Shown: piece after piece, positions 35,324-38,299 of the stretch | How positions within the stretch are numbered: position 1 is the stretch's first letter | Layout: every line of letters starts with the position of its first letter | Position numbers and translations under genes: made by a program | DNA from: Candidatus Jettenia caeni | GTDB lineage: Bacteria > Planctomycetota > Brocadiia > Brocadiales > Brocadiaceae | Reading direction: 5' to 3' | Assembly: GCA_000296795.1 (NCBI GenBank) | Contig: BAFH01000004.1 | Coordinates: forward strand, 186,001-250,000 | DNA: 64,000 nt | Notes under the pieces: model-generated | The model's input: the letters and a program-made list of their open reading frames with translations, nothing else | Told to the model about the DNA's origin: nothing | The model's database searches: none

Positions 35324-35440
35324 GAAAACCTCCCTTTTCTATGAAAATACCTATTACTGCTCAATATCAGATAAGATTTGTAGAATCCTACTTTCTACGA
35401 AGAATTACGTAGTAATAATACAACAGAAACACAAGATTAA

Positions 35441-35536
35441 TCCTCCCTTCCCTTGATGGGAGAGGGCTATGGTAAGGGTGCACAATGAGATTGTTTTCTT
35501 TCCCTTATTCCCGTCCCACCACGGGGGAGGAGGTAC
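35441..35536. repeat. Paired GC-rich inverted element
   Basis: TCCCTTGATGGGA-type left arm and a CCACCACGGGGGAGG right arm, separated by about 40 bases. Same class as 41-439 and 19806-19912. It sits in the leader between the riboswitch terminator and the synthase gene. Confidence 0.6.
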
Positions 35537-35642
35537 TGAATTTTCTCGTATATATACCGTAATTACACAAAATCAAGCTGAGAGCTTCCCTTGATTTCTC
35601 CCTTGCAGAGGAGAGAAAAGGGGTTATAAATTTCAAGTTCAG

Positions 35643-35700
35643 ATAAAACAAAAAAACCTTACTTCGAGAATATTAAGTCAAATATTCTCAGAGTAAGGTT
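35643..35700 (-). terminator. Terminator in the riboswitch leader
   Basis: On the minus strand AACCTTACT, an internal mismatch and GAGAATATT pair with AATATTCTC and AGTAAGGTT. The stem is long and followed directly by TTTTTTTGTTTT. It lies about 60 bases after the aptamer and about 320 bases before the synthase start, so it is a plausible expression platform or attenuator. Confidence 0.75.
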
Positions 35701-35761
35701 CTCTGATTTATTTCGAATATATTTATCATGTTCGGTAGTAGGGCTATCTTTCATTCATAGG

Positions 35762-35850
35762 AGAGACGCATCATGATGCGCCTCTGCCAGTGTAATTAAA
35801 GATCCTTTACTTTGCGTCCCCTGATCACTCAGGGTTTGCCTTTATCGCTC
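35762..35850 (-). ncRNA. Cyclic di-GMP-I (GEMM-I) type riboswitch
   Basis: The minus strand reads GGCAAACC (35840-35833), stem CCCTGA / TCAGGG closed by a GTGA (GNRA) tetraloop, then GGGACGCAAAG (35820-35810). That is the hallmark order and spacing of the GEMM-I aptamer core. A second hairpin (GGCGCATCATGATGCG) follows in the P3 position. A sigma70 promoter ends about 25 bases upstream. A c-di-GMP ligand is expected for this class, but a few GEMM variants bind cGAMP; the P3 arm here is not canonical enough to be certain. Confidence 0.72.
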
Positions 35851-35873
35851 TGTCTTAATTTTTAAACGCTACC

Positions 35874-35902
35874 TATATAACAAGTATGTTGTCTTATGTC
35901 AA
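35874..35902 (-). promoter_or_regulatory. Sigma70 promoter of the riboswitch leader
   Basis: On the minus strand TTGACA (35902-35897) and TATATA (35879-35874) are separated by 17 bases. A start near 35866 puts the GEMM aptamer at the very 5' end of the transcript. Confidence 0.78.
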
Positions 35903-35949: not shown

Positions 35950-36870
35950 CTAACCTGATTTCTTGGATCGTTTTAGTTTCTTTCCCAGCCTGAGTATCGA
36001 TAGGAAGCGAGGTACAAACTGATCAAATAGGTGAAAAGAATTATTTCTCCTTACCATTTTACTTTGATTCTTAAGATTATCTTTCTTTCTTGGATCAAAA
36101 CGGTCTATAGGATCATCAACAAGCTCTCTGGTGTCTTTATCTCGTTCATCAAGGATAAAAGACGGGACAGATTCTGTTATCCTCGTCCTCCGATTCAGCC
36201 TCATATTCGAATTGTCACCTAACTTTGCGATAATCTTGAAGTCAAAAGCCCTGATCATTTCTGGTGTAGCTCCAAAAGCAAAATTTACACAGCCATAGTC
36301 TGAAGATACAATTACATGGGCTAGTTCTTTTAAACCATTTTTATCAAACGGAATATAGACCGGTTCACCTATGGATAGTTCATCAAATCTCTCAAGGGTG
36401 AATTTTGATGTTTTAATTAATTCTGCAAGCGATTTATCCAACAAGTCGAGTTTGAAAAAACAATCCTCCGATGCACGACGCACGATGTCATCAGCAGCAG
36501 GAAAATCTACTTTTCTCCACGTATTTAACAAATTCTCACCATCGTAATTAGCCAATATCCAGGGAAGGATAAACCAAAAATGCCTTCTGTACTCAGGGGG
36601 AATGCTAATGCCCTGTAAATGGTAAATGTTTCGGCCATCTTTATCTTTATGGTTTGATAAACCGCAACTCACAAGAAACGTAGTTTGTAAATGGTTTAAG
36701 CAGTAAAGAGGCAAAACCGGCGATTTGCAGAAAGCATTTTTGTACTTATCATACAGATTGTAAAGCTGATTTAATAGCTTAAGACTATCTGAAGAAATTT
36801 TCGGTGGAACAATCATCCATCGATAATCTTTCGATAAAGAACGGGAATATAAAAGTTCCTGGTATTTCAT
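35950..36870 (-). CDS. GTPase-associated protein (GAP1-N-like), third gene of GTPase module
   Basis: 306 residues. The N-terminal ~190 residues (YSRSLSKDYRWMIVPPKISS, then LPLYCLNHLQTTFLVSCGLS and KDKDGRNIYHLQGISIPPE) have the look of the 'GTPase-associated protein 1' N-terminal domain that accompanies prokaryotic conflict-type GTPases. This is pattern recall, not a search result. The C-terminal ~80 residues are charged and probably disordered (KKDNLKNQSKMVRRN). The start overlaps the end of the GTPase gene by 4 bases. No catalytic motif is visible. Confidence 0.6.
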   Translation of the reverse strand: MKYQELLYSRSLSKDYRWMIVPPKISSDSLKLLNQLYNLYDKYKNAFCKSPVLPLYCLNHLQTTFLVSCGLSNHKDKDGRNIYHLQGISIPPEYRRHFWFILPWILANYDGENLLNTWRKVDFPAADDIVRRASEDCFFKLDLLDKSLAELIKTSKFTLERFDELSIGEPVYIPFDKNGLKELAHVIVSSDYGCVNFAFGATPEMIRAFDFKIIAKLGDNSNMRLNRRTRITESVPSFILDERDKDTRELVDDPIDRFDPRKKDNLKNQSKMVRRNNSFHLFDQFVPRFLSILRLGKKLKRSKKSG

Positions 36871-37940
36871 TTGATCTGCCTTACCCTCTCCATTGCTTTG
36901 CCCAAGAGCGGTTCTATATGTGTCTCAAATTGGCTTAAAATTTCGTAATCCTTATTTTTTTCTTCTAAAATAGCTCTGGCGATACTCTCGGCATCAGGCT
37001 TACGCATGATGAGAGACCAGATTTTATTTACCAGCCCCGCTTTTTTCAGGATTTCTGAAAGTTCTTTTTCCCTTTGCCTTATACTCTTGCTGGCTTCCTC
37101 TCTCATCTGCTTTAAAGTTTGCCCTAAACAATAAAACAAAACATGTTCTGCATTCACCGGTTGTGGAAATCCCACAATCTTATCTTCGGACCTAAAAGGA
37201 TGTTTAACATCCTCTGTAGGAGTAACAGACCGATGAACATTACCCTCTCCTACTGCAGAGACAGGAACAATACACCCCTCCCAGGAGGGATTTTGCTTCT
37301 GTAAAGATACCATCTGATTAAATACTTCCAGGCCCCGTTCAATCAACGGCGCATAATTGTCAGTTTTCCACCTGGCATCAACCGTATCTGCCTTTGTTAA
37401 CATGATTACAAATATTAAATTCCTATTCGGATAAATCCTGCTATAGGTTGTGAATATCTCATGGATCCTGCGTGCTCCTGACCGATGTCGTGCTTCTTTA
37501 ATATTCGGATAATACGTCAGGACAAAGGCATCTGCAACCAGGATAACAGCATTACTGAGTTCAATATGAGAAGCCAGGTCAGTAATTTCAGATCTGACCA
37601 TATCCGGGGATTCCTGAGTATCCGTTGTATCCGTAATTTCTGTTAAAATACCTCCGCGATAATCTATCCAATCAAAATAGGTTACCGGCCTTGAATTATG
37701 ATACACAGTAAAAGGCCATACCGTTGTCTGCTGTGTACCGTCAGGCCATTTTAACTTATCGGCAAGTGAAAACCTGCTAAAATCGCCAACACTCAATATG
37801 GCTTTATCAAATTGCTGTACAGAACGCGGGGCAATGTAAAAACCTGCCTCATTTTGCCCTGCATCTCCAAGCGTTTCATAAAGTGCTGACATATATGCCG
37901 TTTTGCCAGAACCTGATATACCTACCATAGTTACTTTCAT
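36867..37940 (-). CDS. P-loop GTPase of a GTPase-associated (conflict-like) module
   Basis: 357 residues. Walker A/G1 VGISGSGKTAYMSALYE is at the N terminus, the G3 region is probably FDWIDYRGG, and G4 is VIMLTKADTVDAR with a probable G5 VPVSAVGEG. These place it in the TRAFAC class. The C-terminal ~80 residues are a coiled-coil helix (SKSIRQREKELSEILKK). AGAGG precedes the ATG. It is flanked by a small two-helix membrane protein and a GAP1-N-like protein, all on one strand. Possible roles are defence, stress sensing or membrane remodelling; none is proven. Confidence 0.78.
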   Translation of the reverse strand: MKVTMVGISGSGKTAYMSALYETLGDAGQNEAGFYIAPRSVQQFDKAILSVGDFSRFSLADKLKWPDGTQQTTVWPFTVYHNSRPVTYFDWIDYRGGILTEITDTTDTQESPDMVRSEITDLASHIELSNAVILVADAFVLTYYPNIKEARHRSGARRIHEIFTTYSRIYPNRNLIFVIMLTKADTVDARWKTDNYAPLIERGLEVFNQMVSLQKQNPSWEGCIVPVSAVGEGNVHRSVTPTEDVKHPFRSEDKIVGFPQPVNAEHVLFYCLGQTLKQMREEASKSIRQREKELSEILKKAGLVNKIWSLIMRKPDAESIARAILEEKNKDYEILSQFETHIEPLLGKAMERVRQIK

Positions 37941-38026
37941 ATCTCATTTACCTCTCATAAATCATTTCATAATTACTGTGGGAAGTTTTGGAATACATGC
38001 TATCTCATGATAAAACCATACCCATA

Positions 38027-38299
38027 CTATGCCTTCGTTTTCTGCCTCATCATTTCAAAAACTATACCAAAAATACCTCCCATGAATGGCGCTATAATCG
38101 CTAGTTTTGAAAAACCTGCAATAATCCAAATTACTACAAAAAGAGAAAACCCTACCATTGCACCCAGGAAAAATGCCTGTATGAGTTGCGCAGGCGCTCT
38201 TTGAATTTGCCCAGATGCTCGTTGCTCCGGGAGTTTCTGCTCGTTCGGCATTAAAACCCTCTTACTGAGGTCCTTATGTCTTTCAATATTGTCTGACAT
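38027..38299 (-). CDS. Small membrane protein of the GTPase module
   Basis: 90 residues, first gene of the minus-strand unit. A polar N-terminal half (KDLSKRVLMPNEQKLPEQRA) is followed by two membrane segments (FFLGAMVGFSLFVVIWIIAG and a shorter one around LAIIAPFMGGIFGIVF). AAGGT lies upstream of the ATG. It is 86 bases ahead of the GTPase gene. It could anchor the GTPase or be its effector; the family is unrecognised. Confidence 0.7.
   Translation of the reverse strand: MSDNIERHKDLSKRVLMPNEQKLPEQRASGQIQRAPAQLIQAFFLGAMVGFSLFVVIWIIAGFSKLAIIAPFMGGIFGIVFEMMRQKTKA

What the first reader, a model, noticed from the sequence alone, without database searches (positions are those of the whole stretch)
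35643..35902. Promoter, c-di-GMP-type riboswitch and terminator upstream of an alpha-oxoamine synthase
On the minus strand a TTGACA/TATATA promoter with 17-base spacing is followed by the GEMM-I core (GGCAAACC, GNRA-closed stem, GGGACGCAAAG), then a long hairpin with U-tract, then the PLP synthase and possibly the radical SAM gene. This implies second-messenger control of a lipid-like or amino-ketone product, an unusual target for this riboswitch class.
Basis: partly seen in the sequence, partly recalled or inferred. Interest (0 to 1): 0.74.

Follow-up and report, generated by a model that had tools for sequence, protein, structure and literature searches.

The report
c-di-GMP riboswitch before amino-ketone synthase
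An anammox bacterium carries a real RNA switch for the signal c-di-GMP, with its own promoter-like site and stop signal, in front of a probably borrowed amino-ketone-forming enzyme gene; it is one of about two dozen copies of a dispersed switch cassette in this genome, which come in two layouts that may act in opposite directions.

Summary
Minus strand 35850-35731 is a c-di-GMP-I (GEMM-I, RF01051) aptamer, 57.9 bits against a gathering score of 35. Its pocket bases G20, A47 and C92 are canonical, not the A20 cGAMP type. A promoter-like TTGACA-17-TATATA lies upstream; a strong intrinsic terminator (z -7.1) and an alpha-oxoamine synthase (AOS) gene lie downstream. All are conserved in three Jettenia-type anammox genomes. 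The switch is one of 21 CM matches in this genome, plus 3 more intact and 2 decayed copies, dispersed before unrelated genes (pilins, PilM, glycosyltransferase, kinase, GGDEF protein). Two platforms occur. In type 1 the aptamer's 3' strand is itself the terminator arm (ON layout). In type 2, including this site, aptamer and terminator are separate (layout of a known OFF switch). In 19 of 19 type-2 leaders the terminator's base strands are invariant (CCUUAC/GUAAGG) while the upper stem varies, which suggests they also contact the aptamer. Polarity here is unsettled. The AOS is an apparent horizontal acquisition whose relatives sit in Bacteroidetes fatty-acid/polyketide-type clusters. The radical SAM gene is probably not part of the unit. 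New member of a known kind, unusual target.

The parts
35874..35902 (-). promoter-like site TTGACA-17-TATATA
   Evidence: 10 of 12 consensus bases, shuffle p about 0.05; 96.6-100% conserved in two sister species; not listed by the stricter scan
35731..35850 (-). c-di-GMP-I (GEMM-I) aptamer; G20 at 35840, A47 at 35813, C92 at 35735
   Evidence: RF01051 57.9 bits; RF03167 58.5 bits, below its cut-off of 59
35804..35811 (-). P3 5' strand AGUAAAGG (P strand), possible partner of the terminator arm CCUUACU
   Evidence: sequence, CM pairing, leader comparison
35737..35743 (-). P3 3' strand CCCUACU (A strand)
   Evidence: CM pairing, leader comparison
35650..35700 (-). intrinsic terminator; T strand CCUUACU 35698-35692, H strand AGUAAGG 35663-35657, U-tract 35656-35650
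   Evidence: -21.8 kcal/mol, z -7.1; T and H strands invariant in 19 of 19 type-2 leaders
35324..35649 (-). remaining untranslated leader between terminator and AOS
   Evidence: 63.8% identical to J. ecosi, the least conserved segment; no other full copy in the genome
33953..35323 (-). alpha-oxoamine synthase gene (456 aa), likely target
   Evidence: Aminotran_1_2 133 bits; best NCBIfam hits below cut-off; 91-93% orthologues in the genus, 59-62% relatives in Bacteroidetes

Best explanation
This is a c-di-GMP-I riboswitch in the 5' leader of the AOS transcript. Transcription starts near 35867. The aptamer forms within about 140 bases and samples c-di-GMP, and the outcome decides whether RNA polymerase stops at the terminator at 35700-35650 or reads on into the AOS gene. 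Aptamer and terminator do not share a strand here, which is the layout of the known OFF switch Cd1: ligand-locked P3 leaves the terminator free, so c-di-GMP lowers AOS expression. Without ligand the terminator's CCUUACU strand could pair with the P3 5' strand and hinder termination. Shown: aptamer, canonical pocket, terminator, their conservation, invariance of the terminator base strands. Inferred: ligand binding, termination, control of the AOS, and the OFF direction (about 0.5 on its own). The enzyme probably joins an acyl thioester to an amino acid to give an amino ketone.
For: CM match far over cut-off. Promoter, aptamer, terminator and AOS conserved together in three species, with a U-A to C-G change on both sides of one terminator pair in J. 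ecosi. Ten GGDEF domains in the genome. Two platform layouts in the same genome that match the ON and OFF layouts described in PMC9262584. T and H strands invariant in 19 of 19 type-2 leaders against 13 different upper stems, and this motif occurs only at riboswitch-like leaders in the genome.
Against: Predicted pairing of the terminator arm with the P3 5' strand is weak at this site (at most 0.19, falling to 0 when the arm is complete), although strong at other type-2 leaders (0.87). The terminator is far more stable than any predicted antiterminator. A 326-base poorly conserved leader separates terminator and gene and could hold another promoter. No binding, transcription or expression data.
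Confidence: 0.72

Rival explanations
1. Real aptamer, but the switch acts in the ON direction: ligand binding prevents termination, as predicted for the type-1 majority in the same genome.
For: 56 of 75 leaders with a recognised terminator are type 1, where the aptamer's 3' strand is the terminator arm. The H strand AGUAAGG can still pair with the aptamer strand CCCUACU with one mismatch.
Against: At this site the terminator has its own complete 5' arm and needs no aptamer strand, so a ligand-held aptamer does not obviously block it.
Confidence: 0.15
2. The aptamer is real but the terminator stops transcription regardless of ligand, and the AOS is expressed from a separate promoter in the 326-base leader; the conserved terminator strands reflect common descent of the cassette.
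For: Very stable terminator; weak predicted antiterminator here; long intervening leader; cassette copies are clearly related by descent.
Against: T and H strands are fixed while the rest of the stem changes freely. Aptamer and promoter-like site remain 92-97% conserved to J. ecosi while the following leader falls to 64%. No consensus promoter listed in 35450-35323 or upstream on the minus strand.
Confidence: 0.2
3. The ligand is cGAMP or another dinucleotide, not c-di-GMP.
For: Geobacter GEMM-Ib aptamers look nearly the same and bind cGAMP (PMC6456294, PMC8835794). The variant family RF03167 scores about as well as RF01051 (58.5 bits).
Against: Base 20 is G and base 47 is A by alignment; A20G turns a cGAMP switch into a c-di-GMP switch (PMC6456294). 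Ten GGDEF domains; whether any is of the cGAMP-making type was not tested.
Confidence: 0.07
4. AOS and the radical SAM gene form one c-di-GMP-controlled operon for a lipid-like product.
For: Same strand, same order in J. ecosi, no terminator listed in the 351-base gap.
Against: The radical SAM gene has 77-89% relatives in 16 non-Jettenia family genomes, in varied settings, and none of these has the AOS.
Confidence: 0.1

Closest known systems
c-di-GMP-I (GEMM-I) riboswitch, RF01051
   Same: Full-length CM match, GNRA-capped P2, canonical pocket bases G20, A47, C92
   Different: Long P3 extension (46 inserted bases); placed before an AOS gene; one of many near-identical dispersed copies
Cd1 riboswitch of Clostridioides difficile (OFF; PMC9262584)
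   Same: Aptamer and terminator are separate and can coexist
   Different: In Cd1 the switching strand pairs with the aptamer's stabilising strand; here the terminator arm resembles that strand and would pair with its partner, the P3 5' strand, instead
pilM riboswitch of Geobacter metallireducens (ON, cGAMP; PMC9262584)
   Same: The type-1 leaders of this genome share its principle: aptamer strand used as terminator arm
   Different: The window site is not of this layout and has G, not A, at position 20
Alpha-oxoamine synthases (BioF, KBL, serine palmitoyltransferase)
   Same: Fold-family sequence match; VDEAHS and TFSKAF motifs present; best solved relative 8s1y, 211.7 bits
   Different: Below every curated NCBIfam cut-off; N-terminal part of about 60 residues (39-98) shared with Bacteroidetes relatives from carrier-protein/ketosynthase clusters

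Membership tests
c-di-GMP-I riboswitch (RF01051) | Covariance-model score above the gathering score | tested here: met
   57.9 against 35 bits, model 1-87
c-di-GMP-I riboswitch (RF01051) | c-di-GMP pocket bases G20, A47, C92 | tested here: met
   35840 G, 35813 A, 35735 C by CM alignment; numbering from own knowledge of Vc2
c-di-GMP-I riboswitch (RF01051) | Binds c-di-GMP | not testable with these tools
   needs in-line probing or ITC
c-di-GMP-I riboswitch (RF01051) | Lies in the 5' leader of a gene on the same strand, conserved with it | tested here: met
   same arrangement in three species
GEMM-Ib cGAMP riboswitch | A at position 20 | tested here: not met
   G at 35840
c-di-GMP-I-GGC variant (RF03167) | Score over cut-off and G at position 47 | tested here: not met
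   58.5 against 59 bits; A at 35813
OFF-type transcriptional riboswitch | Aptamer and terminator separate, able to coexist | tested here: met
   fold and leader comparison
OFF-type transcriptional riboswitch | Antiterminator that excludes the aptamer or terminator | tested here: inconclusive
   P:T pairing at most 0.19 here, 0.41-0.61 at the J. ecosi orthologue, 0.74-0.87 at Flp pilin leaders
Serine palmitoyltransferase, BioF or KBL | Score above the curated NCBIfam cut-off | tested here: not met
   bioF 297 of 426, KBL 285 of 460, SPT 248 of 640 bits

The most novel reading that the evidence does not exclude
In Jettenia-type anammox bacteria a dispersed c-di-GMP riboswitch cassette exists in two opposite-acting forms: an ON form that shares a strand with its terminator, and an OFF form with a second copy of the P3 3' strand (CCUUACU) as a private terminator arm that also competes for the aptamer. 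The OFF form stands before a horizontally acquired amino-ketone synthase, so one signal moves different gene sets in opposite directions.
Probability: 0.33. Interest if true: 0.62.

Novelty: new member of a known kind. Interest (0 to 1): 0.46.

Why it matters
c-di-GMP has been linked to aggregation of the anammox bacterium Ca. Jettenia caeni (Guo et al. 2017, Water Res. 113:181; seen here only as a citation in PMC9683572 and PMC8851195). No description of the RNA side of that signalling was found in the papers searched. Anammox bacteria are hard to manipulate, so a set of 20 to 56 leader switches per genome gives a testable list of direct c-di-GMP targets, including pili, glycan export and an uncharacterised amino-ketone enzyme. 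Two layouts in one cassette family would also be a natural experiment on how a riboswitch changes direction.

Tried and rejected
AOS-radical SAM operon: the radical SAM gene has close relatives in 16 non-Jettenia family genomes, in varied neighbourhoods, without an AOS. Two family genomes have a GEMM-I switch about 1 kb before it, but another gene lies between; taken as coincidence. Acyl carrier protein of the Bacteroidetes cluster in this genome: no match, but an empty search with an 80-residue protein is weak evidence. cGAMP or GGC-variant specificity: rejected on pocket bases. A general genomic terminator as source of CCUUAC/GUAAGG: rejected, the pattern occurs only at riboswitch-like leaders. 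A dispersed repeat in the AOS leader: no other full copy. A common promoter motif before all leaders: not shown, only about 20-30% of leaders with a terminator pass the shuffle test. No structure prediction was run for the AOS; the fold class is clear and a model would not give its substrate.

Full report
Setting. The window lies on a 4.09 Mb genome of an anammox planctomycete of the Jettenia type: the AOS protein is 91% identical to that of Ca. Jettenia ecosi, and two other held genomes are of the same genus.

The observation. On the minus strand the order is: TTGACA 35902-35897, 17 bases, TATATA 35879-35874; aptamer 35850-35731; terminator hairpin 35700-35655 with U-tract 35656-35650; a further 326 bases; AOS 35323-33953. 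cmscan finds a single Rfam match in the 64 kb window, RF01051 at 57.9 bits, gathering score 35. The P2 loop is GUGA. The terminator folds at -21.8 kcal/mol, shuffles -6.65 +/- 2.14. The promoter is plausible but not exceptional (10 of 12, shuffle p about 0.05) and a stricter scan does not list it; its conservation (100% and 96.6% over 29 bases) is the better argument.

Ligand. On the CM alignment the bases that contact the dinucleotide are G at 35840 (position 20), A at 35813 (47) and C at 35735 (92); the numbering follows Vc2 from my own knowledge. An A20G change turns a Geobacter cGAMP switch into a c-di-GMP switch (PMC6456294), and this site has the G. The variant family RF03167 scores 58.5 bits, just under its cut-off of 59, but the base that marks its consensus (GACGCGAA) is the ordinary A here. 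The genome holds ten GGDEF domains. c-di-GMP is therefore the likely ligand; binding was not tested.

Conservation at this gene. All three Jettenia genomes have the riboswitch before the orthologous AOS. Identity to J. ecosi by segment: promoter 96.6%, aptamer 91.8%, terminator 76.5%, terminator to start codon 63.8%, start of AOS 91.9%. The terminator of J. ecosi differs in sequence, but the ninth pair of the lower stem changes from U-A to C-G on both sides, so pairing is kept.

One of many. The own genome has 21 CM matches, the sister genomes 24 and 28, and one family member 56. A pattern search for the platform motif adds three intact copies not in the CM list and two whose aptamer core has decayed. 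The cassette of this site, about 205 bases, occurs elsewhere in the genome at 91, 87 and 85% identity, before a glycosyltransferase followed by an ABC-2 exporter gene (L061), a prepilin (L053) and a PilM-like gene (L054), while the sequences upstream are unrelated (about 50% identity). By the same measure the copy at L061 (88%) is as similar as the orthologous cassette of J. ecosi (85%). This fits copying or gene conversion between loci; which of the two is not decided. Other linked genes are an Flp pilin, a histidine kinase, a response regulator with a GGDEF domain, beta-helix, matrixin and PKD-domain proteins, an SDR and a transposase. Targets were assigned by position only. Against this background an AOS is unusual.

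Two platforms. Folding of 94 leaders from four genomes gives 56 type-1, 19 type-2 and 19 without a recognised terminator. In type 1 the aptamer's own 3' strand (AGCCUUACUGCCGAA) pairs with a downstream GCAGUAAGGCU next to the U-tract, so ligand-held P3 should block termination: an ON layout, the principle of the pilM switch of G. metallireducens (PMC9262584). In type 2 the aptamer strand reads mostly CCCUACU, and a separate hairpin with base AACCUUACU...AGUAAGGUU lies about 30 bases later. This is the arrangement of the OFF switch Cd1 (same paper). All 35 recognised leaders from the 56-copy genome are type 1; type 2 was seen only in the three Jettenia genomes. Only one genome outside the genus was sampled, so this does not show that type 2 arose in Jettenia.

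A hint of switching. Over the 19 type-2 terminators the six pairs nearest the U-tract are always CCUUAC/GUAAGG, while the next eight bases of the stem have 13 different sequences and mostly stay paired. In the own genome the pattern occurs 17 times: 12 at CM-matched leaders, 3 at further intact copies, 2 at decayed ones; the reversed control has 0. A terminator needs only pairing, so a fixed sequence suggests a second partner. CCUUACU is the natural partner of the P3 5' strand AGUAAAGG and matches it better than the aptamer's own CCCUACU. Common descent is the alternative, and several of the 19 are orthologues of one another. Equilibrium folding does not settle it: for transcripts ending in the terminator arm, pairing of arm and P3 5' strand is 0.74-0.87 at the Flp pilin leaders and 0.41-0.61 at the J. 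ecosi AOS leader, but at most 0.19 at the window site, falling to 0 when the arm is complete. Given a real aptamer, I put OFF at about 0.5, constitutive termination at about 0.3 and ON at about 0.2.

The enzyme. The AOS belongs with BioF, KBL and serine palmitoyltransferase but scores below all curated cut-offs, so its substrates are not assigned. Within the family it is confined to the three Jettenia genomes; other hits there are at most about 37% identical. The nearest relatives found are 56-62% identical, mostly in Bacteroidetes MAGs (that search reaches close relatives only). There the gene sits among an acyl carrier protein, two SDRs, a phosphopantetheinyl transferase, an acyltransferase, a FabA-like dehydratase and a ketosynthase, in some loci with an HMG-CoA-synthase-like protein or a modular polyketide synthase. 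Horizontal gain and an acyl-thioester substrate are reasonable inferences; no such cluster was seen beside the Jettenia gene in the stretch examined. The motifs VDEAHS and TFSKAF are present.

The radical SAM gene. It has relatives of 77-89% in 16 non-Jettenia family genomes in varied settings, none of which has the AOS. No terminator was listed in the 351-base gap, so read-through is possible, but it is not part of the unit on present evidence.

Literature. No paper in the searched library was found that describes GEMM-I switches in anammox bacteria or a c-di-GMP link to an AOS. The library lacks most subscription journals, so this is not proof of novelty.

Noticed in passing
G020:C1 (56 RF01051 matches), G022 (44), G013 (35): Some anammox family genomes hold 35-56 c-di-GMP-I riboswitches, far more than the order-level relatives (0-10).
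   Followed up: partly
L171 1-371, L172 1-361: Riboswitch platforms whose terminator survives but whose aptamer core has decayed: apparent riboswitch remnants.
   Followed up: partly
L050 (G000:C3:542961-543390) and L049: Three near-identical aptamers within about 5.5 kb, two of them 342 bases apart before a near-identical pair of beta-helix protein genes; different aptamer subgroup (AGCCACUG P3 strand) and no terminator recognised.
   Followed up: no
L052 (G000:C4:469774-472361): A c-di-GMP-I riboswitch precedes a response regulator with a partial GGDEF and a methyltransferase domain, a possible feedback loop.
   Followed up: no
L064 (G000:C2:346444-349487): A type-1 riboswitch lies about 0.5 kb before a DDE transposase gene; an insertion may have separated it from its former target.
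   Followed up: no
window 36867-38299: Three same-strand genes upstream of the riboswitch (GTPase-like with a weak DO-GTPase2 match, and two without family) conserved in order in J. ecosi.
   Followed up: no
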